From Blepharisma japonicum (lineage: Eukaryota; Ciliophora; Heterotrichea; Heterotrichida; Blepharismidae): a DNA stretch of 64,000 nt. Positions 574-50,223 of the stretch are shown one piece after another. Under the pieces are notes generated by a model. It did not search any database. It worked only from the letters and a program-made list of their open reading frames with translations, and was not told where the DNA came from. Made by a program: the position numbers and the translations under genes. The first letter of the stretch is position 1. Every line of letters begins with the position of its first letter. The stretch is taken from contig CATKHK010000078.1 of assembly GCA_949751835.1 (NCBI GenBank), forward strand, positions 62,001-126,000, read 5' to 3'.

Positions 574-1563
574 TTAATTGGTACTGTCTTGAGCCAATGC
601 ATTTTCCATCTCCTGAAGCTCTTTTATCTCCTTTTCAATAGTTTTCTCTCTATTATCAATTTGTTTTCTAATTTCTTCCAATGTTGAGTTTTCTATAGCC
701 CACGTCGCCACAATATCTATTGCAGATAGCCCAGCTCCTATAGTAGACGCTTTCAAAAACTTGGCATTTCTCCCAGCTGTCATTATTGACGGCCAGCCCC
801 CTTTTAAAGAAAAAATGCTTTTAGTAGACTTTAAAGTCGTCGCTTTTAATGCTGATAAAGTTTTGTACTCTTTTACCATTTTTCATATCCTTGAGCCAAT
901 ATGGTAGCTTTGCATTGCTAAATTGCTGACTTCTACGAAATTTTTAGCTTTAAGCATAGAAACTTCGTATCGGATGGCAGCTTTTTCTTCTTCTATTAGG
1001 ACTTTTTTCATTTTTTTGAGCTGATTTTTTTCAATGAAGTATTGGGTTACTGTTGTACCAACACTAGTAAGACTTCCTACAATCATTGTGACTATCCCTA
1101 ACATGGCTAAAGGGGTAAAAATTAGGCCGGTACCTGCCATGTTTGCACTGATTCCGATTGTGTTGGAAATTTTGCAGCCAAGCAAGTGGCTTTCGAGGTC
1201 TTCTTTAATGTTGGTTAAATAAATGATAGATGTGCGCAGCTTACTGATGTATGTTTTTTTATTGGCATACAGCTTTTGTATGCTGGAAGCTAATTTATTA
1301 GGATCTTCAGCTTGATTAAGGCTTAATGCTTGCTGATTTTTTTTGATAAATTGAGAAATTTCATATCGGAGGAAGTAATTTTCGGCAAGATTTTTATGCT
1401 TTAAGTCTTTTTCAGTCACTGGCGAAGTTTTATTGCGACTGAGTCAGCTAGTGATTGCTGCTCGCTCATATGTGTTTCCATCAGCAGCATTGACAGGATC
1501 TTCCATTATTTCTTGAGTGATCGGGCATAAATATTCGTGCGGGATGTGAACTGACTCAGACAT
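574..1563 (-). CDS. U-box protein with ApoL-like hydrophobic hairpin (copy 1)
   Basis: A 329-residue protein when TGA is read as Trp (883-885 and 1444-1446). The N-terminal U-box (about residues 8-75) has the family core '[14 protein letters not shown]', 'AADGNTYER' and a TGA-coded Trp where sisters have W in 'AIxxWL'. U-boxes bind E2 enzymes, so a ubiquitin-ligase role is likely. After it come a helical '[20 protein letters not shown]' segment, a Gly/Ala-rich hydrophobic hairpin ('[19 protein letters not shown]...[18 protein letters not shown]'), a charged coil and a final hydrophobic helix with an acidic tail. That order resembles apolipoprotein-L proteins. Start ATG at 1561-1563; stop TAA. 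No close partner besides its sister genes. Confidence 0.85.
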
Positions 1564-1975
1564 ATTTGAATATTTATGTATTGGTCTTAAAAAATGGATG
1601 TGTCAGCATTTTTATTAATTAACTCAGAATTTTTTAGGATTTTCTAATTGTCTGAAAAAATTATATGCCTTTGTTACAAATACGCTGCATTATATATATA
1701 CGTATTTATTTATATGGTATTTTATTTAAACTTCGAATGATCAAATAGTTCTCTTGCTATAGACTAAGCTATAATTATATTTTAACTCTACCTTAATTGC
1801 AAGCATTTTTATTTATCATAATTTCTTATTAATTAAAATTTTTTCTTTCTAAGAATATTTATTGATAGGCTGGATCATTGAGCATTAAATATCCTTTAAA
1901 TTCTCGAAAAAAATGAAAAATAATAGTTTATAAAGAATTTAAAACATAATATTGCTGTATTAAGCTTGGCTTAAT
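1564..1975. other. Intergenic spacer
   Basis: AT-rich spacer of about 410 bases between two co-directed U-box genes. It should hold the promoter of copy 1 and the terminator of copy 2. I see no open frame, RNA gene or repeat I can name. Confidence 0.6.
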
Positions 1976-2938
1976 TTAAGCCAGTGCATTCTCAAACTCT
2001 TCAAGCTCTTTTATCTCCCTTTCGATGGTTTTCTCTTTATTATCAATTTGCATTTTAAATTCTTCCAATGTCGGATTTTTCACTGCCCATGTCACTACAA
2101 TATCTATTGCAGATAGCCCAGCCCCTAAGGCTGAAGCTTTTAAAAATTTCGTCGCTTTGCAGGCTGCTACTGCTGATGACCATCCCCCAATACCCAAGAC
2201 GCTTTTAGCAGAAACAAGACTAATATCTGCAGCTCTTAAAGCTTGAAAAAGCTGAGTGTGCTTCATGATTTTCCATATTCTTGAGCCAATTTGGTAACTT
2301 TTTATTCCAAAACTTAAAACACCCATTAAATATTGCGTTTTCATTTGAGAAACTTCATAGCGGACTCTAGCTTTTTCTTCTTCCATTAAGACTTTTTTCA
2401 TTCTTTTCAGCTGGCTTTTCTCTATGAAGTATTGAGTAACTGTTGTTCCGATCGAAGTTAAACTGCCTGCAACAATAGTTGCGACGCCTACAAGAGCTAA
2501 AGGGGTAAAAAGCATACCAGTTCCTGTAATACTTGCACTGTTTCCGACTGTATTGGAGATCTTGCAGTTAAGTAAATGCCTGCTGAGGTCTTCTTGGATA
2601 TCAGTTAGATAAATAATAGTAGTTCGTAGCTTAAGGATGTAGGCTCGTTTATTTTCAAGTGTTTTTTCTAGACTGAAACTTGTTTTATCTTCTAAAGAGT
2701 CTACAGATGGATTTTTTTCGTTAAATTTAGAAATTTGAGAGGCAAGGCGGCGATTTTCGACAAGGTTTTTATGTTTCAAATTTTTTCCAGTCACTGGTGA
2801 AATATTATTGTGCTCAAACCAGTGCATTATGGCTGCGCGCTCATATGTATGCCCATCAGCAGCGACAACAGGTTCTTCCATGATATCTTGAGTTATCGGG
2901 CATAAATATTTCTGAGGAATAGAAGCTGGTTCAACCAT
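1976..2938 (-). CDS. U-box protein with ApoL-like hairpin (copy 2)
   Basis: A complete 320-residue protein. U-box at about residues 8-78 ('[27 protein letters not shown]' in parts, 'WFEHNNISPVTGK'). The central part carries 'LTDIQEDLSRHLLNCKISNTVGNSASITGTG', then two hydrophobic helices ('MLFTPLALVGVATIVAG') and '[20 protein letters not shown]'. The C-terminal helix '[15 protein letters not shown]' is followed by an acidic coiled tail. The hairpin plus C-terminal amphipathic tail is like the ApoL family; membrane insertion is inferred. It is closest to copy 1, as shown by the shared 'SRIWK' and 'KFLKAS' segments. Confidence 0.85.
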   Translation of the reverse strand: MVEPASIPQKYLCPITQDIMEEPVVAADGHTYERAAIMHWFEHNNISPVTGKNLKHKNLVENRRLASQISKFNEKNPSVDSLEDKTSFSLEKTLENKRAYILKLRTTIIYLTDIQEDLSRHLLNCKISNTVGNSASITGTGMLFTPLALVGVATIVAGSLTSIGTTVTQYFIEKSQLKRMKKVLMEEEKARVRYEVSQMKTQYLMGVLSFGIKSYQIGSRIWKIMKHTQLFQALRAADISLVSAKSVLGIGGWSSAVAACKATKFLKASALGAGLSAIDIVVTWAVKNPTLEEFKMQIDNKEKTIEREIKELEEFENALA

Positions 2939-3412
2939 AATTAAAATACAGATTTTTGATATATAGAATCTATATTAATGTAAACTTAGTTCTAATAACT
3001 TTAGCCAAATACATTGATAAAAATAGTGGCATGTGATAAATATTTATTCTTCTTTTATATGCATTGCTAAATTTAAATTTACTTTTGTGCGCCTTTAGTG
3101 GACTGTCTTTATTGATTTTAAGTTTAATCTGTTTAAGTGTCATAATGAGATAAAAGTAATAAGGTTTTATGCCTTAATAACTTAGTTTTACTTCAGGTCT
3201 GAATTCTCAAATAAAACATATAATGTTATTGTAATATAATATGTATTTTAATGATGCTTGAAATAATCAAGAATTCCAACTTACAAAAACATTGAAAGAT
3301 TTTCTCAATTACTTCAAGCCAATCCGTAATAATTTTAATAGGTAAAATCTTACTAATCTAATGAATTTCAACTCTTTTAAAACTAGCTATTACTATATTA
3401 GCTTAAGATGTA
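2939..3412. other. Intergenic spacer upstream of U-box copy 2
   Basis: AT-rich, no credible coding frame. The first about 60 bases after the start codon are repeated almost unchanged at about 3872-3905, upstream of a decayed copy, so they probably include the family's 5' untranslated and promoter sequence. Confidence 0.5.
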
Positions 3413-3871
3413 GAGTTCTCTAAATCCTCAAGCTCTTTCATCTGTATTTCAATCATCCTTTATTTACAGTCAATTTCATTCTTAATATCTTCTAATGTCG
3501 AGTTACTCATCATCCGAGTCATCACAATATCGATACTCGATATTGCAGCTCCAGCTACTGTACAATATTTCGACAATCTTCCAGCTCTCAGAAAATTACA
3601 TCCATTTAAAGCTAGCAAGATTATGTTGCTCGCTCTTAAAGCTGTGCTAATTGATTTTAATTAATGATATGCCTAATATATTTTTTTAAAAATCTCTATT
3701 TGTAAATTTTTTTGAAAAGAAAACTCTATTAGAATTATGTTTATAATGGAAGTTATCAAAAATTTAATAGATCGAAATAATATATATATAAAAATATATT
3801 CTGCTCTTAAAAATATATTAAAGCAATCGGACATAAATATTTCTGAGGATAGGAGCTGCTCAACTATAATT
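3413..3871 (-). pseudogene. Decayed U-box/ApoL-like gene with central deletion
   Basis: 3413-3610 matches the C-terminal coding part of copy 4 (acidic tail and last hydrophobic helix), and 3825-3871 matches the first codons of copy 2 including its upstream sequence. The U-box and hairpin between them are missing. No open frame spans it. It is a clear remnant of the same family. Confidence 0.7.
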
Positions 3872-4346
3872 AAAATACAAATTTTTGATATAGGTTCTAT
3901 ATCAATGTAACATTTTTCTAATAATTTATATCTAATAAATTAATAAAAAATAGCAGCTATGATAACTATTTATCTTTATTATATATGTATTGTTAATTTT
4001 AATTATATAAAATTTATTTTTGTGCATCATTAATGAACGTCTTTATTGACTTTAAGCTTAAGTTCTCAAAAATCATAACTGTGATAAACTAAAGTTTTTA
4101 TATTCTGATGACTTAGCTTTATTTTACGTTAGAAAATTTTGCCAATAAAATTAATTAAATTGTAATATGATGCATATTTTAAGGACGTTTTAAAATGATC
4201 AAGAAGCAATAGAAAACAGAGAAAGATAAGTTTCTTCAAGCAAATTTCACAGAAAATTCTATTGGGGAAAATCTTAATAATATAAAATAAGAAATGAATT
4301 TCTATTCTGCTTCACAACTAGATATTACTATTACAAGCAGATATTA
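3872..4346. other. Spacer, 5' flank of the decayed copy
   Basis: Its first part (to about 4140) is homologous to the upstream flank of copy 2 (2939-3230), showing that flank and gene were duplicated together. The rest holds nothing I recognise. Confidence 0.5.
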
Positions 4347-5384
4347 TTAATTTAAATTCAGAGATTTCTCTAGATTCTCTAGATTCCCAAGCTCTCTCAT
4401 CTGCATTTCAATTATCCTCTCTTTACAGTTAATTTGATTCTTAATTTCTTCTAGAGTTGAGTTATTCATCGTCCAAGTCATCAACATATCGATACTCGAT
4501 ATCGCAACTCCAGCAACTGCACAATATCTCGACAATTTTCCAGCTGTCAGTACCTTACCAAGCGTTCCCCCTCCACCCACAACGTTAGTCGCAGGCTTCG
4601 CAGCAATATTTGCAACTCTTACAGCTTGCAAAGCTTTCAGCTGACTTGCGATTTTTTCAATTCTTGCCCCAATCATGATGGTTTTTGTCACAATATTTGC
4701 AGTTTCTACAAAATACTGAACTTTAATTTCAGAGACTTCATAGCGGATTTCAGCTTTTTCTTCTTCAATTAAAATTTCTCTCATTTTTTTGAGCTTTCTT
4801 TTCTCTATATAATGCTGGGTCATCGTTGTTCCTAAAGAAGTTAAACCGCCTGCAACTAAAGTTCCAATCCCTAATAAGGCGAAAGGAGTAAAAAGAAGGC
4901 CGGTTCCTGCAATACTTGCTCCATTTCCAGCAGTGTTGGAAATTTTGCATTTAGTTAAGCTTCTTTCTAGATCTTCTTTGATATCAGTTAGAAAAATAAT
5001 AGAAATCCTGATAGCGTCAATATAATCTTTTTTATTGGAAATTGCTCTTCGCAAATTTGAAACCACTCTGCTAAACTCTTCGATAGGTAAATTCATCTCG
5101 TTACGCTGCATTAAGTCAATAAATTGGGGAGCTGCTGGAATTGCTTCTAATGGGGCTAAACAGTCATTAAATTGAGAAATTATGGACCGGAGACGGTGAT
5201 TTGGGACAACTTCTTTATGATTTAAGGCTTCTCCTGTCATAGGAGAAGTATTGTGCCGCTCAAGCCAAAGGATAATCGCTGTACGCTCATAAGTATGCCC
5301 ATCAGCAGCGACTACAGGGTCATCCATTATATCTTGAGTGATTGGGCATAAATAGTCTTCAGGGATGAAGGCTGGGTCGACCAT
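4347..5384 (-). CDS. U-box protein with ApoL-like hairpin (copy 4)
   Basis: A complete 345-residue protein, the longest of the family here. U-box residues 8-78 ('YLCPITQDIMDDPVVAADG', 'WLERHNTSPMTGEAL'). A spacer 'LAPLEAIPAAPQFIDLMQRN' lengthens the linker. The hairpin reads 'NGASIAGTGLLFTPFALLG' and 'GTLVAGGLTSLGTTMTQHYIEK'. A variable Ala-rich region and 'CAVAGVAISSIDMLMTWTM' precede the acidic tail. U-box homology suggests E2 binding; the membrane role is inferred. Stop TAA. Confidence 0.87.
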   Translation of the reverse strand: MVDPAFIPEDYLCPITQDIMDDPVVAADGHTYERTAIILWLERHNTSPMTGEALNHKEVVPNHRLRSIISQFNDCLAPLEAIPAAPQFIDLMQRNEMNLPIEEFSRVVSNLRRAISNKKDYIDAIRISIIFLTDIKEDLERSLTKCKISNTAGNGASIAGTGLLFTPFALLGIGTLVAGGLTSLGTTMTQHYIEKRKLKKMREILIEEEKAEIRYEVSEIKVQYFVETANIVTKTIMIGARIEKIASQLKALQAVRVANIAAKPATNVVGGGGTLGKVLTAGKLSRYCAVAGVAISSIDMLMTWTMNNSTLEEIKNQINCKERIIEMQMRELGNLENLEKSLNLN

Positions 5385-6115
5385 ATTTTAAGAAACGTTA
5401 TCTGAGATTTACTTAAGTATATATTTTATATTTATTATGATATTTTATAATTCTATAAAAGGGAAATTTTGAAAGAATTCGAAATTTTTTGGTCATATAA
5501 AGCTAGAGGACTTTTTAAGCTTTTAGAAGAATAACAATAGGAAATATTAGCTAAATACTCAAATATATTCAGATCTCCCTATTTTATTAAAAAGCTGAAT
5601 AACTTGGTAGTGATTAAGTATAATCAAATTGCCATTTGTGAAAAATTAGATAATTAAAATAGCTATATTAGTTTTAAAAATCATTCGTTATTGCAAGATT
5701 TTTACTGGCATGACGTGATTTTGACCAAGAAAAATAAATAAAACATTAATTGTAGTAAATTTATGCTAGCTTATATAGAGAGAAATTCTTAAGCTAATCA
5801 TACAAAAAATGAAAAGAACTTATAGGAATTAAACCCGATTTAGGGTAATATCATATAATTTATCACATACTGATTTATTTTGGTCTAACAAAAGCTGATA
5901 TATGAAAAAAGCTCTTATTTTTTATATCAATTGCATTTTTATTTTCCTCAATTGAGGAAAAATATATAGAATGCTCATCTTGTAGTCATTATTATAGTCT
6001 TTAAATCTTTATAAATCGGCTATCTAGATATAAGGCATGAACTTCAAGATTTATCACATTAAAAATACAATTAATTAGCAGTTTAGAGTTATATATCATT
6101 TTTTCCATAATTTCT
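5385..6115. other. Intergenic spacer
   Basis: About 730 AT-rich bases upstream of U-box copy 4. Short open frames occur on both strands but none has a protein pattern I can defend. Confidence 0.5.
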
Positions 6116-6440
6116 TTAAAACATATGGCTTGAAATCGAACAGCTCTCTGATAGTGCTTCATATTGAGGATCTTCAATTCTTGGCCCTTCTTCTTTTTTG
6201 GCTTCTTCGGGTGAAATCTCAAAAAATGTGCTTGCGCCTTCATTCTCAGTCCTTAAATACAGTCCTGGATTTTCATCCTCTTCGTAGAGAATTGTCCTGT
6301 TGGTATCCTCAACAAGGAACTCTTCTAACTCAAAGGTATTATAACTTCATGATCTGGTAGGCCAATTGATGAATCTTCTGAGACTCTCAGAGTAAAACCT
6401 TCTTCTTTAACATAAGTGCGAAGATTTTCCCATTTTAGTA
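6116..6440 (-). pseudogene. Fragment of an unknown acidic protein gene
   Basis: The minus strand holds a coding-looking stretch with phrases such as 'LEEFLVEDTNRTILYEEDE' and 'FFEISPEEAKKEEGPRIED', ending in TAA at 6116-6118. Upstream (to about 6440) the coding look continues in another frame ('GFTLRVSEDSSIGLPDHEV'). The upstream piece has a more decayed match at about 9123-9240. I do not recognise the family. It is most likely a broken host gene, or an exon with missed small introns. Confidence 0.4.
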
Positions 6441-6769
6441 GCAATAATTAGACGCAAAATCTTAAAATTATAATAAAATTATTGAAGTTACTCCTTATAT
6501 AAGGAAACTTTTTCGTTGCTATTTTACAAGAAAATATTTTATTTTCCCTTTCAGGCATTCTTAATGTTTTCTTTCTCTATTTCTTCCTCATTATCATATC
6601 GCAAATACTTTTCTCCTCTAGTACATCAATATGTCCTTTACTATTTGAGTCAATATGAAATATACTTTTCATATGATCAATTATCATATATCATGAGCAC
6701 TTCAAAGAATAAATAATGATATTTGAGATTTTGATGCTAATTTAATTTCCCTTAATAAAATTTATGAAA

Positions 6770-6930
6770 GCCGCTAAAAATTAGAGAAAAGGCATGGAGA
6801 GGGAAGGGGTGTTGATAAGCTCAATGGCTTTAATATTGACAATTTTGCATCAGATTTAAGACATGGAAAGGAAAGCGTATCTATTTAAATGGATCTACAT
6901 ATGATGGAGACTTTTTAAAGGTGATGGGTC
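6770..6930 (+). pseudogene. MORN-repeat remnant
   Basis: In pieces the plus strand reads 'RHGEGRGV', then 'RHGKGKRIYLNGSTYDGDFLK', the Gly/Tyr pattern of MORN repeats, but without one open frame. A second copy is at about 9655-9795 and a longer one at 38244-38632. A fragment only. Confidence 0.45.
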
Positions 6931-6967
6931 GAAATTGTCAAATATTATTATTATTTAAGATGTTATC

Positions 6968-7933
6968 TTAATCCTTCTCCAAATCTTCGAGCTCTTTTAT
7001 CTGCGCATCAATCAGTCTTTCCCTGCAATTAATCTCGTTCTTAATTGATTCTAGGGTTGAATTATCCATTGTCCATGTCAAAACAATATCAACAGTCGAT
7101 ATGACAGCTCCTGCAACTGCACAATATTTGGAGAGTTTCCCCAAAGTCAGTACTTTTGACACCCCTGATCCTCCAGAAACCACGTTTGCAGTAGGCTTCA
7201 CAGCAATACTTGCAACCCTGGCCGCCTGTATAACTTGAACCTGCCTTACAATTTTACCAATTCTTGCACCAGCCATGGCTCCTTGAGTTATAATGTTTGC
7301 AGTTTCTACAAAATATTGGGCTTTAATTTCAGAGACTTCACAACGAATTGCAGCTTTTTCTTCTTCAATTAAGACTTCTTTCATCTTTTTTAGCTTGCTT
7401 TTCTCTATGAAGTGCTGGGTTATGGTGGTTCCTATTGAGGTTAAACCGCCTGCAATTGCACCTATTATGCCTACGACAAATGCAGGAGTAAAAATAAGTG
7501 GAGTACTTGCAATAGCAACACCGTTTCCAACAGTATTGGAAACTTTGCAATTGAGTAGATGCTCTTGGAGGTCTTCTTTTATATCAGTTAAATAAATGAT
7601 AGTAATTCGGATTCTGTCAATATAGTCCTTTTTCTTGGAAATCGCATTCTGCATGTTGGAAATTGCATTGGCTTCTTCATCTTCTTCTGAAGAAATTGTC
7701 TGACGAGTTCGATCTAAATATTGAGATATAATAGAACGGAGACGGTGGTTTTCGACAAGATCCTTATGTTTAAGCTTTTTTCCAGTCATAGGAGAAGTAT
7801 TGCTTCTTTCAAGCCAAAGTGTGATTGCTGCCCTATCATAAGAATGCCCATCAGCAGCAACCACGGGATCTTCCATGATTTCTAGATTGATTGGACATAG
7901 AAAATCATCAGGGATGCTATTGGACTCAACCAT
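6968..7933 (-). CDS. U-box protein with ApoL-like hairpin (copy 5)
   Basis: A complete 321-residue protein. U-box residues 8-78 ('[19 protein letters not shown]', 'WLERSNTSPMTGKKL'). Linker with an acidic 'SSEEDEEAN' run. Core 'KKDYIDRIRITIIYLTDIKEDL', hairpin 'VGNGVAIASTPLIFTPAF' and '[21 protein letters not shown]', variable Ala/Val region, then 'CAVAGAVISTVDIVLTWTM' and the acidic tail. Closest sister is copy 6, made by the tandem duplication. Hydrophobic hairpin plus U-box suggests a membrane-associated ubiquitin ligase (inferred). Confidence 0.87.
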   Translation of the reverse strand: MVESNSIPDDFLCPINLEIMEDPVVAADGHSYDRAAITLWLERSNTSPMTGKKLKHKDLVENHRLRSIISQYLDRTRQTISSEEDEEANAISNMQNAISKKKDYIDRIRITIIYLTDIKEDLQEHLLNCKVSNTVGNGVAIASTPLIFTPAFVVGIIGAIAGGLTSIGTTITQHFIEKSKLKKMKEVLIEEEKAAIRCEVSEIKAQYFVETANIITQGAMAGARIGKIVRQVQVIQAARVASIAVKPTANVVSGGSGVSKVLTLGKLSKYCAVAGAVISTVDIVLTWTMDNSTLESIKNEINCRERLIDAQIKELEDLEKD

Positions 7934-8444
7934 AATTTAGGAAACGTTTATATGGGATTTTCATATTTAGGCAAATAGCCTATTTTATTTAATAGATTTT
8001 TTGAATTCTATAAAAAATGGAACTTAGCTTATTTCTGATAAACTATAAAAAAATAATAAATTTATTAGTTTAATATAAAAATTGACATTAGTTTGTTTAA
8101 ACTCTTGTATGTTAAAAACAATTGTGGATAATCAAGAAAAAATTTTGAAACGCCCATAAGGAGTATTTTTAATGTCTTTTTGAGGATAATCTTTTATTAT
8201 ATTTTTTAATTAATTTTGTATCTTATGATAATTTTAGACATAGCTAGTTGATCTACAAAATAAATCTTATCAGCTAATTTTGTGAAGAAACTATTTTAGT
8301 AAGCATAATAAATGTCGAAATTGCTTGAAGTTAATATTTGGCTCAATTATAAAGAGTCATGGCCATTTTTAATTTTGAATTCAAGTTTAATAATTCATTG
8401 TGCAATTGTTAGTGTGTATTTAACCTTCTTAATTGGGTAAATTA
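7934..8444. other. 5' flank of U-box copy 5
   Basis: AT-rich and non-coding. It is homologous to the flank of copy 6 (10740-11265) and, more weakly, to 35000-35290 and 41600-41840, next to other U-box remnants. The flank is therefore part of the amplified unit. A promoter is expected here but I cannot place one. Confidence 0.5.
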
Positions 8445-8650
8445 ATTTCTCTGGGCAATCTTCCAGCTGCCAATCGTTTTGCCCATTTACCCCCTTCTAA
8501 TGCAAATTTAGTCGCAGTCTCTATGCAGATTTTCACATCTGTTCCCAGAATTTGCAATTCTCCTTTAATTATTTTCAATTCTTGTACCAATAATGATTTT
8601 TTTGCTATATAATTTGGTGCCTCTTCACTATAATTGGACTTTCACCCGCT
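8445..8650 (-). pseudogene. U-box/ApoL-like remnant (C-terminal part)
   Basis: Matches the variable C-terminal region of the family, for example the segment equivalent to 4530-4700 of copy 4. It is short and has no open frame. The same remnant survives in longer form in unit 2 (11605-11985). Confidence 0.5.
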
Positions 8651-9122
8651 TTTCACTTTCAAATATTTTCAAAAACAATTATATAGGCAACTGATATATA
8701 AAATAAAATTAATCTCTGCTGAGGGTGTAAAAGTTCAATTAAATCACTATTATTTCTTCTTTTTTATATTATTATCAATGGTTTATTTTATATTCATATG
8801 AGCTGCACGATAATTGTCGAATTATAACCCTTATACATTTTATTTTTCACATTTTTAAAATTATTAATGCTGATAAGAAAAGCCACAAAAATTAAACCAA
8901 TTTTCCCTCTTATATATTAACTGAGGTTTCTACCACATTATGCAGCCTAATAATAGAACAGAAAACAGTTCTGGCTAATCTATTTTGAAAATGATAGAAA
9001 ATATTAAATAGGGAGCAAGCTAGATACAACTTACAATTTACGACTTGTGACATCAAATAAGCAATTATTAAAAGTAACGAAATTAAAAATAATAGTTAAA
9101 AGAACTTATTTTATATAATGGT
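8651..9122. other. Non-coding end of duplication unit 1
   Basis: Homologous to 11985-12424. The last about 120 bases match the sequence just downstream of the giant receptor gene and of the mini-receptor (about 35500-35600), so an old receptor 3' end once lay here. No gene. Confidence 0.45.
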
Positions 9123-9833
9123 TTCATGATCTGGTAGGACGAATTGATGAACCTTCTTAGACTCTTAGAGTAATCCTTTTGAATGAATTTTATTTTTCTT
9201 TTCTTTAACATAAGTGTGAAGATTTTCCCATTTTAGTAGCAATAATTAGACGCAGAATCTTAAAATTATAATAAAATTATTGAAGTTACACTTTCTAACA
9301 CAACAATTAAAACGGCTTGATAGCCTCTCTAATGGCAATTTACAACCCATCCTCAATAAGGAAACTGTTTACAGGCTATTTTACAAGAAAATATTTTATT
9401 TTCCAGATTCAGGCATTCCTAATATTTTCTTCTTTAATATTTTCTTATATATTTCTTCCTCATTATCATTTAGCAAATACTTTTCACCTCTAGTACATTA
9501 ATATGTCCTTGACTATTTGAGTCAGTATGGAATGTACTTTTCATATGATCAATTATCAAATATCATGAGCACTTCAAAGTATAAATAATGATATTTGAGA
9601 TTTTGATGCTAATTTAATTTCCTTTAATAAAATTTATGAAAGCCGCTAAAAATTAGAGAAAAGGCATAGAGAGAAGGGGTGTTGATAAGCTCAATGGCTT
9701 TAATATTGACAATTTTGCATTAGATTCAAGACATGGTAAGGAAAGCGTATCTATTTAAACGGATCTACAATGATGGAGAGTTTTTAAAAATGATAGATCG
9801 AAATTGCGAAATGTTTATCATTAAGATTTAATC

Positions 9834-10739
9834 TTAAGCCTTCTCCATATCTTCAAGCTCTTTTATCTGCTCATCAATCAGTATTTCCCTGGAACCAATT
9901 TCCTTCTTAATTAATTCTAGGGTTGAATTATCCATTGTCCATGTCAAAACAATATCAAGAGTTGATATGGCAACTCCTGCAATTACACATAATTTCGAAA
10001 GTTTCCCCAAAGTCAGTACTTTTGACGCCCCTGATCCTCCAGAAACCACATTTGCAACAGGCTTCGTAGAAATAATTGCAACTTTGGTCGCATTCATAAT
10101 GTTTGTGGTTTCTAATATATAATGGGCTTTAAATTCAGAGGCTTGATAACGAATTGCAGCTTTTTCTTCTTCAATTAAGATCTCTTTCATCTGTTTTAGC
10201 TTGCTTTTCTCTATGAAGTGCTGGGTTACAGTGGTTCCTAGTGAGGTTATACCACCTCCAATTGCACCTATTATTCCTACGACAAATGCAGGAGTAAAAA
10301 AGAGTGGAGTACTTGCAAGAGTGACACTGTTTCCAACAGTATTGGAAACTTTGCAATGGAGTAGATCCTTTGCGAGGTCTTCTTTTATATCAGTTAAATA
10401 AATGATAGTCATTCGGATTCTGTCAATATAGTCCTTTTTCTTGGAAATCGCATCCTGTATGCTGGAAATTGCATTGGCTTCTTCATCTTCTTCTGAAGAA
10501 ATTGTCTGACGAATTCGATTTAAATATTGAGATATGGCAGAACGGAGACGGTGGTTTTCGACAAGATCACTATGTTTAAGCTTTTTTCCAGTTATAGGAG
10601 AAGTAGTGTTTCTTTGAAGCCACCGCGTGATTGCATCCCTTTCATAAGTATGCCCATCTGCAGCAACCACAGGATCTTCCATGATTTCTTGATTGATCGG
10701 GCATAGAAAATCTTCAGGGATGTTATTAGATTCAACCAT
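9834..10739 (-). CDS. U-box protein with ApoL-like hairpin (copy 6)
   Basis: A complete 301-residue protein, the shortest intact member. U-box residues 8-78 ('[19 protein letters not shown]', 'WLQRNTTSPITGKKL'). The hairpin reads 'VGNSVTLASTPLFFTPAF' and 'GAIGGGITSLGTTVTQHFIEK'. Compared with copy 5 it lacks about 20 residues between 'ILETTNIM' and 'ATKVAIIS', an in-frame loss in the variable region. The last helix 'CVIAGVAISTLDIVLTWTM' and the acidic tail are kept, so it looks functional. Its role is inferred as for the sisters. Confidence 0.87.
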   Translation of the reverse strand: MVESNNIPEDFLCPINQEIMEDPVVAADGHTYERDAITRWLQRNTTSPITGKKLKHSDLVENHRLRSAISQYLNRIRQTISSEEDEEANAISSIQDAISKKKDYIDRIRMTIIYLTDIKEDLAKDLLHCKVSNTVGNSVTLASTPLFFTPAFVVGIIGAIGGGITSLGTTVTQHFIEKSKLKQMKEILIEEEKAAIRYQASEFKAHYILETTNIMNATKVAIISTKPVANVVSGGSGASKVLTLGKLSKLCVIAGVAISTLDIVLTWTMDNSTLELIKKEIGSREILIDEQIKELEDMEKA

Positions 10740-11604: not shown

Positions 11605-11985
11605 AGCTCAGAAATAATTCATTATATCTTTTATCTACATTTCAATCATTCCCTTTATGACCAATCCCTTTATTAATTTTTTCAAATTTCAATCTGTCAT
11701 CAACCATATCAAAATATATAGATAGTTTATATAATGATCCTATTATCTACAGAATATTCAAATAATCTTCCATCTGCCAATCGTTTTGCCCATTTACCCC
11801 CTTCTAATGCAAATTTAGTCGCAGTCTTTGTGCAGATTTCACATCCTTTCCCAGAACTTGCCATTCTCCTTTAATTATTTTCAATTCTTGTACCAATAAT
11901 GATCTTTTTGGCTATAAAATTTGGTGCCTCTTCACTATAATTGGACCTTCACCCACTTTTCACTTTTAAATATTTTCAAAAACGT
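11605..11985 (-). pseudogene. Decayed U-box/ApoL-like C-terminal half
   Basis: Aligns with the acidic tail, last hydrophobic helix and variable region of copy 4, read on the minus strand, but without an open frame. Unit 1 of the tandem duplication keeps only its second half (8445-8650). Confidence 0.55.
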
Positions 11986-12453
11986 TTATATTAGGCAACT
12001 AATATATAAATAAAATTAATCTCTGCTGAGGATGTAAAAGTTCAATTAAATCACTATTACTTCTTCTTTTTTTATATTATTATCAATGGTTTATTTTATA
12101 TTCATATGAGCTGCACGATAATTGTCGAATTATAACCCTTATCAATTTTATTTTTCACATTTTTAAAATTATTAATGCTGATAAGAAAAGCCACAAAATT
12201 AAACCAATTTTCCCTCTTCTATATTAAGATGAGGCTTCTGCAACATTGTACAGCCTAATAATAGAATAGGAAACAGTTCTAGCTAATTTATTTGAGAATT
12301 AAAGAAAATTTTAAATAGGCAGTAAGCTAGATACAACTTCACAATTTACGACTCGTAACATCAAATAAGTAGCTATTAAAAGTAACGAAATTAAAAATAA
12401 TAGTTAAAAGAACTTATTTTATATACGATTTTGTTATGAAATGAATTAACTAC
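11986..12453. other. Spacer downstream of the giant receptor gene
   Basis: AT-rich. Its last about 120 bases match the region downstream of the mini-receptor gene (about 35500-35655), so it is receptor 3' flank. It should hold the terminator and polyadenylation site. No gene. Confidence 0.5.
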
Positions 12454-32938: not shown

Positions 32939-32963
32939 ATTTATATAATTCAATGGATATTTG
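32939..32963 (-). promoter_or_regulatory. Conserved element at the giant receptor start
   Basis: Read on the minus strand, 'AATATCCATTGAATTATATA' lies within 25 bases of the ATG. Versions of it stand at the same place before the other three paralogue starts (37195, 39291 and 51614). Probably core promoter or leader sequence. Confidence 0.5.
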
Positions 32964-33590
32964 TTCAAAATATGCACAATGAATCGAAATTTAAATATAA
33001 ATTGGACGAATATTTATTTTTATGGGAGTTTTTGCGACGATAAAAGTTATTAAATGGAAAGGTTAAAATTTTTATTATCTAAGCATTTTAGGATTTATTG
33101 AATCACCATTTATCATGTCAAATTTTAATGAGTGTCCTTAGAAATCAATGTATTTAAGTATAAAAATTAAAAATTTTCTTTTAATCACCTTAAAATATAC
33201 TTGCATTACCCTGCGTCATCTATAATTTTATATAATTTTTTTTGACCTTAGATTATATGTAGCATTCTTTAGAAAAAATAAAACAGCCTTTGCTGGAGAT
33301 TTAACATCAAATTTCATATGAGATTGGATTAGGATTAGACTAAATTAAAGATAAACTCTCCTTGTTAATGTCACATCTAGGGAAGTTTTTAGAGGAAGCT
33401 TGATTAGCTTCAGACTAATCTTGTAGATTTTAAATGAATTTTTTTTCTCATCAGATCAGGGATGAGAGGAGAAAATAAATCGTTGAATTTAATCAACTCT
33501 TAGTAATGATTTTATCCATAAGTGCTTTATTTTCATCAACTTATATAATTTAATCCAGTTTAGGAATATAAGCTATAAAATGCTTAATCA
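32964..33590. other. Upstream region of the giant receptor
   Basis: AT-rich and non-coding. The first about 250 bases are homologous to the upstream regions of the mini-receptor (37220-37400) and of the N-terminal fragment (39315-39480), including 'gagtttttgcgac'. The promoter should be here. Confidence 0.5.
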
Positions 33591-34010: not shown

Positions 34011-34315
34011 GCTGACGAATAGATTTTTACCCTAAATAAAGTTCTCCGAAAAGAGAAAAATGATTTTATTATGATAAGATTTAAGCAATAAAATAATCTA
34101 TATTAACCTATAATTTAATCAATATTTGCATTTTCACATATAAATTGCTTTGTGATGATCTAAATTTTTTAGACTGATTAAAAATTAAATTACAAATCAA
34201 GCATAATTCTAATTTTACTTTTACAAATATGATAATACTTCAATACTTAAAAAAGCAATTCTATTTTAATTATTTTCACAACTGTTATAGTATAATTTGC
34301 ATTAGCCAGTTATAG

Positions 34316-35000
34316 AGTTAATTTTCGAGATCCTCAAGTTCTTTTATTTTTATTTCAATAATCCTCTCTTTACAGCCAATTTTCTTCTTAAATTTTTCTA
34401 ATTTAGAGTTGTTCATCGTCCACGGCAAATAAAAATTAATATATGATATAATGAACCCAACAATTGCATAATATTAAGATAATTTTCTAGATGCCAATAA
34501 TTTTGCCCATCATTCTCCTTTCAATACAACTTTAGTCGCAGGTTTTCTGCTGGTTTTCACAGCCTATCCTAGAACTTGTAATTCCTCTCAATTTTTTCAA
34601 TTCTTACACCAACTATGACCCCTTTTTGCAATATAATTTGAAGTTACTTAAAAAATAGGGTTTAACTTCAAAACCTGCAGCTTTCTTCTAATAATACTTC
34701 TTGCATTTTTTGAGCTATTTTTCTTCATGAAGTGTTGGGTCATGGTCGCACCTAAAAGAGTTAGTCCGCTTATAAATAATGCTCCTCCTGCACCTACTAA
34801 GGTTGAAGAAGTTAAAAGGCCTCCTTCTGAAAATCTTGCGCTGCTTCCTGCGGTGTTTGAGGTTTTGTAATCAAAGAGATGATTTCTAGGTCTGTTTTTG
34901 CTCTTTAATGATTAAGGATATTAAAACTTTTTACCTTGACATTGTAGTCTTTTATCTTGGAAATTATTTTTGCCTGATGGAAAGCTTTTTTAAGAATTGG
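34316..35000 (-). pseudogene. Decayed U-box/ApoL-like gene
   Basis: From left to right it matches the acidic tail, last helix, variable region and hairpin ('LxxAGGALFISGLTLLGATMTQHFMKK'-like pattern, in parts) of the intact copies on the minus strand. The U-box end is not recognisable and there is no long open frame. Its upstream flank (35000-35290) matches that of copies 5 and 6. Confidence 0.6.
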
Positions 35001-37690: not shown

Positions 37691-38240
37691 ATCTAATTGA
37701 GATAATATCTCTTCAAATCCTCAATCTCTTTCACTATTTTTTATTTTAGTCTATCTCTTTTCTCAAATGGCTCTTTAATTTTTTTCAGGGCCTTAGTATA
37801 CATTGTGCACAGTAAAACTAGATCAGAAAGTAGCCTTTAAATTTGCATAGGCTTTTTAGCATTAACTATTTTTGAGTTCTTCTCTTATGGATCAAGGATT
37901 ATTTCACCATTCATGATTATTTGAATTTCACCATTTAAGGATTTAAGTTAAGCTAGAGATTAGCTTTATTCACTAGCATTGATGAGCTATGATGATTATA
38001 AATCTTAAAATATATTTCTTATAATTTAGAATAGAAGAAGATACTTCTTGAGCTGATAAATGGGCTTTTATCTTAGGTAATTAGTGTAAAAATTTAGATT
38101 TTATAAGGCAGATATTAATGTTTTCGATAAGACTTTTGCAGTTATCAGAGAAATATTATTTGCTCAAACCAAGAAGTAATAACTAGCCTTCCATAAGCAT
38201 GCATATCAAAAATAATTTCCGGTCTTTCATAATTTCTTAA
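37691..38240 (-). pseudogene. Decayed U-box/ApoL-like remnant
   Basis: The left end matches the family's C-terminal tail ('cctcaatctctttca'), and 38140-38240 matches the second half of the U-box through 'PIT'. Between them the sequence is shortened and unrecognisable. Confidence 0.5.
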
Positions 38241-38243
38241 GCA

Positions 38244-38632
38244 ATGGGGCTTAAGAAAGGAAAATATATATATTTAGCAGAAGCTACATACGATGGGGAC
38301 TTTTTTAACAATGATAGGCATGGCTTTGGAATTTTTGATAGTGAAGAGATCCATACCGAGGCCGAATATAAAAATGATGGCTTAAATGGTTATGGAAAAC
38401 TCATTTGAAAAGGTAAATATCAATATGAAGGACACTTTTTAAATGGTACAATAAATGGATATGACCACATTGTTTTTGAAAAAGGAGAAGAGTATTGAGG
38501 AAATTCGTAGACAGACATTATAACGGAAAAGGAGTTTTAAAGCCAAAATGAAGTGAATGGATTCATGAAGGAGAATTTCATAATCACAAAAAATGGATTT
38601 TTTATCAGCACTCATCCATTGGTGGAAGGTAG
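38244..38632 (+). pseudogene. MORN-repeat protein fragment
   Basis: ATG at 38244 opens 88 codons with the MORN pattern: 'YDGDFFNNDRHGFGIF', 'YKNDGLNGYGKLIWKGKYQ', 'YEGHFLNG', 'GEEYWGN'. Three Trp in the whole stretch are TGA. After TAG at 38508 the same pattern goes on in the next frame ('DRHYNGKGVLKPKW', 'WIHEGEFHNHKKW') to TAG at 38630-38632, which points to one frameshift. MORN repeats bind membranes or scaffolds. It begins at the edge of a U-box remnant, so it is probably a captured gene fragment. Shorter relatives lie at 6770-6930 and 9655-9795. Confidence 0.6.
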
Positions 38633-38807
38633 AGAGCTTTTGGGTCAATAATTTAATGATAAAAGAAAATGCTCTGCATAAAAAATCTCGATTTCGTATC
38701 GTTAATGAATATTTTATAAGAGGACGAAAGTGCAATCATATTGATGAAATCGCACCATTCATTTACCTTGGAGATGGTATAGGGCAGGTGATGAGTTATT
38801 GCTAAAA

Positions 38808-39291: not shown

Positions 39292-39318
39292 ATTTTTATA
39301 ATTTAATGGATATTTATT
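39292..39318 (-). promoter_or_regulatory. Conserved element at the receptor-fragment start
   Basis: Minus-strand 'AATATCCATTAAATTATAA' directly before the ATG, the best match to the element at the two giant genes. Confidence 0.45.
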
Positions 39319-39700
39319 AAAGATAAGCACACTGAATCTAATTTAAAAATTTATAAATTGGACGAAGCTGTTTTTATGGCAGTTGCTGCAATGATAGTTA
39401 TTAAATTGACTGGTTAAAATTTTTATTAACAGACCATATTTAGAATATTCTTGAAAACCCTTTTACCATGTGAAATTTAAATAAAAATTAGAATTTCTTT
39501 AGAAAAAGTCCTTATAAATCAATGTATTCATATAATTAATTTGACCAGAATCATAATTAATTATAAAAATTCTATTAAGTAAAAAGATTAAAATTTTCTT
39601 TTGTTCACCTTAAAAATATATTTTATCAGCTTGCATAATATATAATTTTGCTAGGTTCAGAAATATCTGGTATAAGATGTTTAATCATAAGGAATCTACT
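39319..39700. other. Upstream region of the receptor fragment
   Basis: Non-coding; homologous to the upstream region of the giant receptor (32964-33250). No gene. Confidence 0.5.
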
Positions 39701-40220: not shown

Positions 40221-40485
40221 AAAAAAGATGTATTTATTGATAAGACTTAAGAAATGAAATGAAATATATTTTAATTATTCAACTTAATCAATATTCGTAT
40301 TTTTGTATATAAATTGTTTTTGTGATGATTTAAAAATTTTATAGATGAACTAAAATAAACAAATTGCTTATAAAGCATAATTATGATTTTAATTTTGGAA
40401 AATGGAATAATACTTCAATGATCAAAAAGAAATTCTTTTTACTATTTTCAGTATAATTCCATTAGCTTAGAGTTAATTTTCCAAA

Positions 40486-41582
40486 TTTTCAAATTCTCTA
40501 ATATTTTATTTCAATCATCCTCTCTTTGCAGCTAACTAATTTTTTAAATTTTCCTATTTATTGTCAATTCCAAAAAAAAATCAATACTTGTATAATGACC
40601 CCAGCAATTGCATAATATCCAGATAATCTTGTAGCTGTAAATCGCTTTGCTTATCAATTCCTTTTAATGTAACTTTAGTCACGTCTTTGTTTGGTTTTCA
40701 CAACCTTTCCTAGAAATTGTAATTTATTCAATTTTTTCAATTCTTATACCAACCATGACCCATTTGAAATGCAATTTGATCCTTCTTCAAAAAAGTTGAC
40801 TTAATCTGCAGCTTTTTCTTCTTTCATTATGACTTCTTGCCATTCTGAGCTTGCTTTTCTCTATGAAGTGCTTAATTATGGTCATATCTAAAAGAATTAG
40901 ACTGTATGCAAATAATGATCCAATGCCTGCTAAGGCTGAAGAATTAAAAAGGCTCTATCCTGGTATCCTTGCACTGCTCTCTGCAGTGTCTAGATTGCAA
41001 TAAAATAGGCTTAAATTTTTATTCTTCATAGATTAATAAATAAAACTTGAGTCTTGACATTTAGTCCTTTTTTAGGAAATTATTTTCACAGGATGAAAAG
41101 CTTTTTTAATTTTCTTCCATAAGATACCAAAACCATTGAATATTCCAACTTTAATTAAACTTAGCAAAAAATTATTTAGTTTGCATGCTTAAACATAAAT
41201 TATATAATTACAATGCATTTTCGCTTTCAAGATTTTCAAATTGGAATCCGAAAACGTTTATATTATGCAAAATAAATGTAATTTTTGTTGACGATAGGAA
41301 CAAAAATTCTGCTCACTTACAGAAAATAGAAGTAAGGTTGCTGAGCCTAAGAGAGAGGGTCTCTCTAGTTCTTGATGGAAATTAAATTGGGAATCTTTAT
41401 GTGGAGGCAGCTTTCAACAATATTTTATATTTTAAGCCTTTCCCAGTTATTGAGAAAGCATCATCTCACTAAAGTCAAAGCCTGATCGCTTTACACTGAT
41501 AGTGTGCCCATCAGCAGTACTCATAACTTCTTTAGTAATTGGGCATAAATAGATTTCGCAATCGAGCCAACCTTGTATAGTA
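40486..41582 (-). pseudogene. Decayed near full-length U-box/ApoL-like gene
   Basis: The family order is still visible on the minus strand: acidic tail (40486), last helix, variable region, hairpin with 'MTxxKHFIEK' (about 40850-40980), linker, and a U-box end reading 'YLCPITKEVM' (about 41520-41560). No open frame spans it. Homologous to 34316-35000 but keeps more of the U-box. Confidence 0.6.
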
Positions 41583-42061: not shown

Positions 42062-42976
42062 TTAATTAGAAAAGTAAATTTTCAAATCTCGAAGCTCTCT
42101 TGCTTCTTCATTGGCTAACCTCTGCTTATTCTCAATTTGCTTCTTGATTTCTTCAAGCGTCTCATTATCAAGTGCCCAAGTTGAAATAATATCTATTGCA
42201 GAGATTGCTGCACTTGTGGCAGCGAAGCCTTTAGAAATTTTTCCAGCACACATGATTCTTACAAGTAGCCCTTTTGCAGATGTAGAAATCTTTGAAGTCT
42301 TTGAAGTGCCACTTACAGCTAGTAAATCTCGAGCAGCATATGTAATATCTTGAAAATTTGATGAGATCATACCAGCATCAGCTGCAGCATTTACGGCATC
42401 TAAAAACAATCTTGCCTTAACATTATTGACCTCATATTTTAATTTTGTTTTTTCTTCTTCCAATAAGGCATTTTTTAGTTGTTCAGCCTTCCCTTTTTCA
42501 ATATAATATTGAGTCACTGAAGTTGCTAAAGAAGTTAAACCTCCTGCAATTAAAGTTCCCACCCCAACCAAGGATAAAGGAGTAAAAAGAAGATAAGTAC
42601 CTACAATACTTGCGCTGCTTCCTGTAGTATTAGCTATTTTACAATTGAATAATTCCTTTTCCAGTTCGTTTTTTATTTTAGTTAGACTAGATATGGATAA
42701 TAAAATTTTTTCAATGTATTCTTCTTTAGCCTTGATCATATTTCTCATGTAGAAAAATACTCTGTCGAGTTTCTCAGTCTCTGAAAGGGCTATTGGCCTC
42801 TTTTGTTGATTGAATTGATAAATTTCTGAAAGTAAGGCGGTATTTGAGATAAGTTCTTTATTTTCAAACTCTTTTCCTGTCACAGGAGAGTTATTTTCAT
42901 ATTCAAAAAAGAGGGTTATTGCTTTACGATCATAGGTGATCTCATCATCAGCTACTACAGGGTCTTCCATGATCAT
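42062..42976 (-). CDS. U-box protein with ApoL-like hairpin (copy 7), start unclear
   Basis: A 304-residue frame from the first in-frame ATG. The frame stays open 24 codons further, and these encode the expected beginning of the U-box ('VEPSLVPNEYLCPLTGMI'), but no in-frame ATG is there. The usual family ATG (43024-43026) is one base out of frame. So either the start has just been lost, or a sequencing error or unusual start is involved. The rest is intact: 'MEDPVVADDEITYDRKAI', 'NNSPVTGKEF', hairpin 'TGSSASIVGTYLLFTPLSL' and 'GGLTSLATSVTQYYIEK', last helix 'AATSAAISAIDIISTWAL', acidic tail. It is diverged from copies 1-6. Confidence 0.7.
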   Translation of the reverse strand: MIMEDPVVADDEITYDRKAITLFFEYENNSPVTGKEFENKELISNTALLSEIYQFNQQKRPIALSETEKLDRVFFYMRNMIKAKEEYIEKILLSISSLTKIKNELEKELFNCKIANTTGSSASIVGTYLLFTPLSLVGVGTLIAGGLTSLATSVTQYYIEKGKAEQLKNALLEEEKTKLKYEVNNVKARLFLDAVNAAADAGMISSNFQDITYAARDLLAVSGTSKTSKISTSAKGLLVRIMCAGKISKGFAATSAAISAIDIISTWALDNETLEEIKKQIENKQRLANEEARELRDLKIYFSN

Positions 42977-43426: not shown

Positions 43427-44407
43427 TTATAAGCAATTATTACTCTCCATAATCCTTTCTAGCTCAGCAGCCTCTTGCTCTTGTAGGCTTAGCTTTTTTT
43501 CTCTATCTTTGATGCACTGCTTTATTTGTTCAAGGGTTTCATTGTCCATTTTCCATGTCATTACTATATCAGCAGCACTGAGTGCTGCCCCAACGAACCC
43601 AAACCATTTAGCCCTCGCGCCTATTTTCAGTGCCTTTGGAAAAGTAATTGCCTTTGCTGCACTTGCCGTCTGTGCTGAATTCAATGCTAAATTCGCTGCA
43701 CCAGTTGCTTTAAAATTATTATACGCTCTTACTAAAATCGTAGATTTTCTGATTTTGCTTAGCATAAATAAAGCCTGAGCTGTAGTTTTTCCAGCATCAA
43801 TTGAATTCCCTAAAGTCACAAATGTTGAGTTAAAAACTTCTTCAGCGTCTTCTTCTTGCTTAAGCACTTCTCTGATCTGCTCTTTCTTGTTTTTTTCAAT
43901 AAAATACTGAGTTATTGAAGTTCCAATGGAAGTCAGTCCGCCTACAGTTAATGCGATTGCTCCATATATTGGAACAGTAGTAAATAGCAGTGCAGTTCCT
44001 GCTATTGTCCCAATGTTTCCTGAAGTATTGGAAACTTTGCATCTGAAAAGATGCTCTTCTAGATTATTACTTAGTTCTGTAAGAGTTGTTATTGATTTCT
44101 TTATATGGTCAATGTACTTTTTCTTGGCATCGAGATGAATTCTCATATCATTTACAAGCTTTGCAAAGTCAACATCTTCGTTAGAAATTGAAGCTTTAAA
44201 ATCGAGAATCAAGGAGCGTAAAGCAAAATTTGGGATGAGGTTTTTGTTAGGCAATTCTTCACCAGTTCAAGGACTTAGATTGCTTTTTTCGATCCAGTCA
44301 GTGATAGCTGATCGTTCATATGTGTGGCCATCAGCAGCGATGACTGGGTCTTCCATTATTTCAAGGGTTATTGGACAGAAAAATTCATCGATTCGTCTTT
44401 CTACCAT
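43427..44407 (-). CDS. U-box protein with ApoL-like hairpin (copy 8)
   Basis: A 326-residue protein starting at ATG 44405-44407, with TGA (44267-44269) as Trp inside 'SPWTGEEL'. U-box: '[19 protein letters not shown]', '[15 protein letters not shown]'. Then '[27 protein letters not shown]', hairpin '[19 protein letters not shown]' and '[17 protein letters not shown]', an Ala-rich variable region, '[15 protein letters not shown]' and an acidic, Gln/Glu-rich tail. It is the most diverged intact member. Its start faces the deubiquitinase gene across a 337-base divergent promoter region. Confidence 0.87.

Positions 44408-50191: not shown

Positions 50192-50223
<32 letters not shown>

What the first reader, a model, noticed from the sequence alone, without database searches (positions are those of the whole stretch)
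574..10739. Expanding family that fuses a U-box to an ApoL-like membrane hairpin
Seven complete or near-complete copies and at least six remnants share U-box, helical linker, a Gly-rich hydrophobic hairpin ('GGLTSxGTTxTQxxIEK'), a variable region, a last hydrophobic helix ('xAISxxDIxxTWxM') and an acidic coil. The order of hairpin, variable region, last helix and coil is like apolipoprotein-L proteins. I know of no described U-box-ApoL-like fusion. It could be a membrane-inserting ubiquitin ligase used in defence, organelle clearance or cell death.
Basis: partly seen in the sequence, partly recalled or inferred. Interest (0 to 1): 0.85.

Follow-up and report, generated by a model that had tools for sequence, protein, structure and literature searches.

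The report
Ciliate U-box ligases with membrane hairpin
A Blepharisma-like ciliate carries a small, tandemly duplicated gene family that joins a ubiquitin-ligase domain to a helical hairpin predicted to enter membranes, laid out much like the human APOL channel proteins, although no sequence test shows that the two are related.

Summary
Read with TGA=Trp, the window carries seven U-box + hairpin genes on the minus strand: five in 574-10739 and two at 42-44 kb. About four places hold remnants, and an eighth copy lies on contig 12. Window copy U6 has lost its in-frame start. In this genome the module was found only behind a U-box or as remnants.

The ApoL reading is partly supported. The hairpin is charge-free over 46 residues in 8 of 8.

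No sequence test links the module to ApoL: PF05461 is listed for 0 of 8 proteins. Structure models are poor (pLDDT 57 and 60) and Foldseek gives no match at E<=0.001. Weak matches, each in 1 of 8, point to NheB and MakA instead.

Best reading: a lineage-specific, membrane-inserting U-box E3 ligase family with a loosely constrained middle region. Target membrane and pore activity are unknown.

The parts
574..1563 (-). U1: U-box + hairpin gene, 329 aa, two in-frame TGA (Trp)
   Evidence: Pfam U-box E 1e-20
1976..2938 (-). U2: U-box + hairpin gene, 320 aa
3412..3648 (-). Remnant: C-terminal part (last hydrophobic helix and coil) of a copy
   Evidence: tblastn E 7e-21 to U3 residues 262-337; two TAA inside the match
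4347..5384 (-). U3: U-box + hairpin gene, 345 aa (longer linker)
6968..7933 (-). U4: U-box + hairpin gene, 321 aa; tandem duplicate of U5
   Evidence: repeats about 2.8 kb apart
7031..7123 (-). U4 residues 271-301: last hydrophobic helix (271-289) with the invariant Asp282, then the first two zipper positions (294, 301)
7406..7543 (-). Charge-free 46-residue hydrophobic hairpin of U4 (residues 131-176)
   Evidence: longest stretch without D/E/K/R is 46 aa in 8 of 8 copies
9834..10739 (-). U5: U-box + hairpin gene, 301 aa; in-frame gap in the variable region relative to U4
10515..10721 (-). U-box domain of U5 (residues 7-75)
   Evidence: Pfam U-box E 3e-21; same place
34303..34905 (-). Remnant: hairpin to coil with in-frame stops
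   Evidence: tblastn E 4e-30; 1 TAG and 3 TAA inside; no Pfam family
37708..38267 (-). Possible remnant traces: coil (37708-37824) and U-box piece (38160-38267)
   Evidence: tblastn E 0.009 and 0.007, weak
40465..41557 (-). Remnant: U-box piece, hairpin piece and coil piece in gene order
   Evidence: tblastn, best E 2.6e-13 for hairpin and coil, 8.8e-4 for the U-box piece
42062..42976 (-). U6: near-complete copy, 304 aa from an internal ATG; in-frame start lost, U-box altered
43427..44407 (-). U7: U-box + hairpin gene, 326 aa, one in-frame TGA; sister of the copy on contig 12

Best explanation
These genes encode a lineage-specific family of membrane-inserting U-box ubiquitin ligases. Shown: an N-terminal U-box, a charge-free hydrophobic segment that can form two helices with a turn at its centre, a variable region, a last hydrophobic helix with one invariant Asp, and a C-terminal four-heptad Ile/Leu zipper; the module was found only behind a U-box (or as remnants) in this genome and has spread by tandem and probably segmental duplication. 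Inferred: both ends stay in the cytosol, the hairpin enters an internal membrane from the cytosolic side, the zipper makes oligomers, and the U-box then ubiquitinates proteins on that membrane, while the variable middle region sets the target. The layout behind the U-box resembles that of APOL proteins (hairpin, addressing region, Asp-bearing pore-lining helix, zipper), so a regulated ion leak or membrane remodelling is possible, but it is not the part I hold most likely. A role in watching phagosomes, organelles or intracellular bacteria fits the tandem expansion and the loose constraint on the middle region, and is a guess.
For: U-box over the cut-off in 8 of 8 copies; the one copy compared with PDB sequences, U4, is nearest to solved E3 U-boxes (LubX, plant PUBs, CHIP, UFD2). 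46-residue stretch without charge in 8 of 8, Kyte-Doolittle peaks there of 1.6-2.2. Both AlphaFold models break the long helix inside this stretch, around the T-P. One invariant Asp outside the U-box, inside the last uncharged stretch, in 8 of 8; I, L, V, M or F at Asp+12/19/26/33 in 30 of 32 cells against 0-16 of 32 in the nine other offsets tried. Signs of purifying selection between older copies: for U1-U2, U1-U3, U3-U4, U3-U5 and U6-U7, dN/dS 0.22-0.35 in the U-box and 0.22-0.39 in the hairpin part, 0.38-0.97 in the variable part (no significance test). Module found only in the eight genes and remnants, plus one row at E 0.29 (the tool calls its counts lower bounds).
Against: No experiment or transcript was available. 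Model confidence is low (pLDDT 57 and 60) and the hairpin could lie in a soluble helical bundle. U4-U5, the closest pair, have dN/dS 1.1-1.35 outside the U-box, so some copies may be under relaxed constraint, and U6 has lost its start. Ligase activity is assumed from the U-box alone. The last helix is short and only moderately hydrophobic (1.2-2.0).
Confidence: 0.55

Rival explanations
1. The C-terminal module is a true, remote homologue of apolipoprotein L, and the protein is an APOL-type channel or membrane remodeller with a U-box in place of the N-terminal bundle.
For: Same order of parts; charge-free hairpin as in APOL3-6, Asp in the last hydrophobic helix as in APOL1-6, and a heptad zipper next to it (against PMC8358165 and PMC8446801, passages). 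Rulers are near: hairpin 46 against 52 residues, hairpin end to Asp 86-110 against 120, Asp to C-terminus 39-47 against 50.
Against: PF05461 is listed for 0 of 8 proteins, not for the module's consensus and for nothing in the genome. First zipper position is Asp+12 here and Asp+20 or +23 in APOL1. No residue like Tyr351 (Asp+3) or Glu355 (Asp+7) is kept, though Tyr351 is said to be in APOL1 only. No four-helix bundle.
Confidence: 0.2
2. The hairpin belongs to, or converged on, the ClyA/Nhe/MakA type of alpha-helical pore-forming protein, so the protein is a pore former tied to a ubiquitin ligase.
For: U7 residues 70-181 match the NCBIfam NheB model at 186-297 (E 3.3e-5) and U1 residues 91-183 match MakA at 152-243 (E 0.0086); one module alone also matched XaxA (E 0.0031). 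In six-frame searches of the whole genome the best place for NheB is U7 (E 0.006) and for MakA is U1 (E 0.12). Reversed controls of four of the eight match neither. Foldseek's PDB lists hold SmhB, AhlB and MakA among the first twelve rows.
Against: Scores are 23 and 15 bits against cut-offs of 500 and 320, each in 1 of 8 proteins. Unrelated models do as well: proC matches U5 at E 0.0034 and PADLOC LeoBC matches the contig-12 copy at E 4.8e-5. The XaxA match was not listed for any full-length protein, and XaxA's best genome places are elsewhere. HlyE gives nothing; HBL's best places are unrelated, U1's coil being one of 25 rows. Control genomes ring with these models. Foldseek's first rows are an Smc coiled coil and a designed bundle, all at E>=0.009.
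Confidence: 0.15
3. The hairpin is only an anchor that holds a ligase on the endoplasmic reticulum, lipid droplets or another organelle for protein quality control, with no pore and no defence role.
For: Hairpin anchors need just such a charge-free stretch with a central turn (general knowledge). Neighbours include ubiquitin-related genes: a UCH-family protease beside U7 (Pfam) and small ubiquitin-like genes beside the contig-12 copy (read by eye).
Against: It does not explain why the last helix keeps an Asp in 8 of 8, nor the tandem expansion with a loose middle region.
Confidence: 0.3
4. The cluster is mostly decaying duplicates with no present function.
For: About four remnant places, U6 without a start, U4-U5 dN/dS 1.1-1.35 outside the U-box.
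Against: Six of seven window copies and the contig-12 copy keep full frames; dN/dS of 0.2-0.4 in U-box and hairpin between older copies.
Confidence: 0.1

Closest known systems
Apolipoprotein L family (human APOL1-6, Pfam PF05461)
   Same: Order of hairpin, addressing/variable region, Asp-bearing last hydrophobic helix, heptad zipper; hairpin without charge as in APOL3-6; multigene family, with clustered genes and rapid evolution also reported for APOLs (passages of PMC8358165, PMC8446801, PMC13177371).
   Different: U-box instead of the N-terminal four-helix bundle; no Pfam match in 8 of 8; zipper starts nearer the Asp; ciliate.
U-box E3 ligases (CHIP, UFD2, plant PUBs, Legionella LubX)
   Same: N-terminal U-box, 8 of 8 over the Pfam cut-off; PDB matches to these by sequence for U4, the copy tested.
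   Different: C-terminal membrane hairpin module; no other Pfam domain passed its cut-off except a MIZ-type zinc finger model overlapping the U-box of U7.
ClyA-type alpha-pore-forming proteins (NheB, MakA, SmhB, AhlB)
   Same: Long helix running into a hydrophobic hairpin; weak profile and fold resemblance.
   Different: No match near any cut-off; ligase domain in front; bacterial proteins.
Other U-box proteins of the same genome
   Same: Same kind of N-terminal U-box; 50 U-box matches in the genome, fragments included; Kelch and DUSP partners by Pfam, WD40-like and ubiquitin-like ones by eye.
   Different: Searches with the module return only this family, its remnants and one row at E 0.29.

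Membership tests
U-box E3 ubiquitin ligases (PF04564) | U-box domain over the curated score | tested here: met
   8 of 8 copies, 34-76 bits against a cut-off of 21.4; U6, read from its internal Met, weakest
U-box E3 ubiquitin ligases (PF04564) | E2-dependent ligase activity | not testable with these tools
   needs biochemistry
Apolipoprotein L (PF05461) | Match to the Pfam ApoL model | tested here: not met
   listed for 0 of 8 proteins (limit E 10; filters drop most above about 0.1); module consensus none; genome none at E<=1, where no control genome rang either
Apolipoprotein L (PF05461) | Hydrophobic helical hairpin (membrane-insertion domain), charge-free in APOL3-6 | tested here: met
   46 residues without D/E/K/R in 8 of 8; hairpin in both models at low confidence; membrane insertion itself untested
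Apolipoprotein L (PF05461) | Asp (APOL1 Asp348) conserved within the last hydrophobic helix | tested here: met
   8 of 8; the only invariant Asp outside the U-box; APOL side from passages of PMC8358165
Apolipoprotein L (PF05461) | Heptad leucine zipper behind that helix | tested here: met
   30 of 32 cells hydrophobic at Asp+12/19/26/33, Ile and Leu rather than Leu throughout; offset differs from APOL1's +23
Apolipoprotein L (PF05461) | N-terminal four-helix bundle before the hairpin | tested here: not met
   about 50-75 residues lie between U-box and hairpin in the seven copies with a full U-box; APOL6 too is said to lack the HC1-LZ1 part (PMC11726835, passage)
Apolipoprotein L (PF05461) | Same three-dimensional fold | tested here: inconclusive
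   pLDDT 57 and 60; only the N-terminal APOL1 domain has a known structure
ClyA-type alpha-pore-forming proteins | Match over a family cut-off | tested here: not met
   NheB 23 of 500 bits, MakA 15 of 320 bits, 1 of 8 proteins each; HlyE none in the genome
ClyA-type alpha-pore-forming proteins | Fold of a long helical bundle with a hairpin head | tested here: inconclusive
   Foldseek rows at E>=0.012 from low-confidence models

The most novel reading that the evidence does not exclude
A protist family of one-chain 'ubiquitinate and permeabilise' effectors: an APOL- or alpha-PFT-like channel module built onto a ubiquitin ligase. It would insert from the cytosol into the membrane of a bacterium, phagosome or damaged organelle, oligomerise by its zipper, gate ion flow with the invariant Asp, and mark the same membrane with ubiquitin, with tandem copies diversifying their middle region against changing targets.
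Probability: 0.15. Interest if true: 0.88.

Novelty: new variant of a known kind. Interest (0 to 1): 0.55.

Why it matters
The APOL papers whose passages I saw treat mammalian proteins. If a ciliate has built the same hairpin, Asp helix and zipper, either the module is far older than that or it has evolved twice, which would say which parts matter. A ligase fused to it would join two steps, membrane attack and ubiquitin marking, in one chain. The gene set is small (eight genes found here) and testable in a laboratory ciliate or in yeast.

Tried and rejected
Pfam ApoL on single proteins, on the consensus and on the genome: nothing. PDB sequence profile of the module: 11 rows, none significant, best Get1 at E 0.12. 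Foldseek in PDB and BFVD: no match at E<=0.001, lists full of long helices. Relatives in GTDB genomes, viral contigs and phages: none; these hold prokaryotes, viruses and phages, so how far the family spreads among ciliates was not tested. PADLOC: one-member matches only, best LeoBC E 4.8e-5 on the contig-12 copy; taken as helical similarity and not as a defence-family match. XaxA, HBL and HlyE models in the genome do not single out this family. U-box tree of 46 rows: the eight need three changes of label, one origin is not ruled out, too few columns to decide. The protein beside U7 (49909-51150) looked to me like an autophagy receptor; Pfam finds no family at E<=0.01, so this was dropped. Literature, listings only: U-box with apolipoprotein L, one unrelated paper; apolipoprotein L with invertebrate, domain architecture and homologs, none; Blepharisma with U-box, none; apolipoprotein L with ciliate, 14, the 10 listed unrelated by title; ApoL-domain terms, 94, the 30 listed name no ciliate in the title; U-box with ciliate, expansion and ligase terms, 68, none of the 15 listed describes such a fusion in title or abstract start; U-box with membrane, hairpin, ligase and protist terms, 12, likewise none of the 10 listed.
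Full report
What was checked. The window lies on contig C78 (62001-126000) of a 45.2-Mb, 224-contig genome. U-box genes in it carry TGA inside the frame, as in Blepharisma stoltei (UGA read as Trp, introns mostly 15 and 16 bp; passages of PMC9942806). I take it to be a Blepharisma or a close relative; no call names the organism.

The family. With TGA=Trp seven genes stand on the minus strand at 574-1563 (U1), 1976-2938 (U2), 4347-5384 (U3), 6968-7933 (U4), 9834-10739 (U5), 42062-42976 (U6) and 43427-44407 (U7). An eighth is on contig 12 at 307264-308310. All eight pass Pfam's U-box cut-off. The other seven are 38-61% identical to U1, and 52 alignment columns are invariant. U6 begins only at an internal Met, has an altered U-box, and no tiny intron was found that supplies a start. 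tblastn with all eight proteins at E<=0.01 finds seven more matched stretches in about four places of the window.

Spread. The genome has 50 U-box matches, some of them fragments of one gene. Searches with the C-terminal module of U3 and of the contig-12 copy return 12 rows each: the eight genes, remnants in the same cluster, and, for U3, one row at E 0.29; the tool calls its counts lower bounds. So here the module is known only behind a U-box. The same kind of U-box also stands before Kelch repeats and a DUSP domain (Pfam) and before ubiquitin-like and WD40-like parts (by eye). The tree of the eight joins U7 with the contig-12 copy (100/99). Both have as neighbours a protein with CENP-B_N and ubiquitin domains and a protein without Pfam family, which points to a segmental duplication. 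U1-U5 look like a tandem expansion; around U4 and U5 repeat pieces about 2.8 kb apart are 80-95% identical. A U-box tree of 46 rows could not show one origin of the fusion, nor exclude it.

Anatomy of the C-terminal module. In every copy the longest stretch without D, E, K or R is exactly 46 residues, beginning (I/V)(S/A)NT and ending in I just before EK. Hydropathy peaks there at 1.6-2.2 and again at 1.2-2.0 near the end. AlphaFold with eight-row alignments gives a long helix, a break inside the stretch, another long helix, a low-confidence middle and C-terminal helices; mean pLDDT is 57 for U1 and 60 for the module of U3, so the models support a hairpin and no more.

APOL hallmarks. In APOL1 the insertion hairpin is residues 177-228, and the last transmembrane helix (335-356) carries Asp348, which sets pH gating and cation selectivity and is conserved in APOL1-6. 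A zipper with leucines at 371, 378, 385 and 392 and hydrophobic residues at 368, 375, 382 and 389 follows; APOL3-6 lack charge in the hairpin (passages of PMC8358165 and PMC8446801). Here one Asp outside the U-box is invariant in 8 of 8, with 11-12 uncharged residues before it and 5-12 after. The positions Asp+12, +19, +26 and +33 are I, L, V, M or F in 30 of 32 cells; the other nine offsets tried give 0-16 of 32. A rule written from these features picks 11 of 105 different open frames of 200 aa or more in the window and the loci then on hand: the eight genes and three cut-off duplicates of them. The rule was made after seeing the family, so this shows only that it is not common in this small set. 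Distances differ somewhat: hairpin end to Asp 86-110 against 120, Asp to C-terminus 39-47 against 50, Asp to first zipper residue 12 against 20 or 23.

Against ApoL. PF05461 is listed for 0 of 8 proteins with the limit at E 10, though the tool's filters drop most matches above about 0.1; it is not listed for the module's consensus, nor found in the genome at E<=1, where the 14 control genomes were silent too, so that last result is weak. The N-terminal bundle is absent. The profile of the module finds no PDB chain with significance, but the PDB could not answer, since only the N-terminal domain of APOL1 has a known structure (PMC11726835, passage).

A second resemblance. NCBIfam matches U7 to NheB (E 3.3e-5) and U1 to MakA (E 0.0086), both across linker helix and hairpin. 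In the whole genome these two genes are also the best places for the two models (E 0.006 and 0.12), and reversed sequences of four of the eight proteins match neither. But each model matches 1 of 8, the scores are far below cut-off, unrelated models do as well (proC on U5, E 0.0034; LeoBC on the contig-12 copy, E 4.8e-5), XaxA, HBL and HlyE do not single out the family, and some control genomes ring with each of these models. Foldseek lists SmhB, AhlB and MakA among the first twelve PDB rows at E 0.012 and above, behind an Smc coiled coil and a designed bundle. A review calls the APOL hairpin similar to those of colicins, diphtheria toxin and BCL2 proteins (PMC7891394, passage). I read all this as one message: a helical hairpin of the kind that enters membranes, with no proven parent family.

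Selection. Nei-Gojobori dN/dS was computed for eight pairs. For U1-U2, U1-U3, U3-U4, U3-U5 and U6-U7 it is 0.22-0.35 in the U-box, 0.22-0.39 in the hairpin part, 0.38-0.97 in the variable part and 0.18-0.63 in the last helix and coil (undefined there for U6-U7). U4-U5 shows 0.49 in the U-box and 1.1-1.35 elsewhere on few changes. The two pairs with the contig-12 copy are saturated and undefined except in the variable part (0.10 at dS 2.8, and 0.73). No significance test was run. Older copies thus look constrained and the middle region looser, which fits changing targets or relaxed constraint equally.

How it most likely works. Shown: the domain set, the charge-free hairpin segment, the invariant Asp, the zipper pattern, the duplicated copies. 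Inferred: cytosolic U-box, hairpin insertion into an internal membrane, oligomerisation by the zipper, ubiquitination at that membrane. Open: pore activity, the membrane, the trigger. I put membrane-inserting U-box ligase at 0.55, a true APOL relative at 0.2, a ClyA-type relative at 0.15, a plain quality-control anchor at 0.3 and decaying duplicates at 0.1; these overlap.

Novelty. The paper searches named under Tried and rejected, seen as listings, found no U-box fused to an ApoL-like module and no paper holding both Blepharisma and U-box in the open-access library. They do not cover most subscription journals, preprints or protein databases. I call it a new variant of a known kind: a membrane-bound ubiquitin ligase with a new C-terminal module.

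Noticed in passing
window 12454-26505 and 26192-32977 (minus), with pieces at 35663-37195 and 38653-39330: Two very long neighbouring open frames (4683 and 2261 aa) that by eye look like tandem duplicates with Cys-rich repeats, with shorter similar frames among the U-box remnants; unknown residues (X) stand near the ends where they meet.
   Followed up: no
window 49157-49786 (minus); L067:8328-8966: CENP-B_N DNA-binding domain together with a ubiquitin domain, in two paralogous places, each near a U-box + hairpin gene.
   Followed up: partly
window 49909-51150 (minus); L067:6970-8166: Paralogous pair of about 400 aa (413 and 398) without any Pfam family at E<=0.01, part of the same duplicated block.
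   Followed up: partly
L068:2079-2543 and L068:2994-3464: Two small genes that by eye hold two ubiquitin-like repeats each, directly behind the contig-12 copy.
   Followed up: no
window 8457-9117 and 11764-12425: Diverged repeat pieces about 3.3 kb apart (86-97% identical in register) next to the U4/U5 duplication.
   Followed up: no
L017, L030 and other U-box loci of the genome: U-box genes with other partners: Kelch repeats (L017) and DUSP plus a weak RanBP zinc finger (L030) by Pfam, others by eye.
   Followed up: partly
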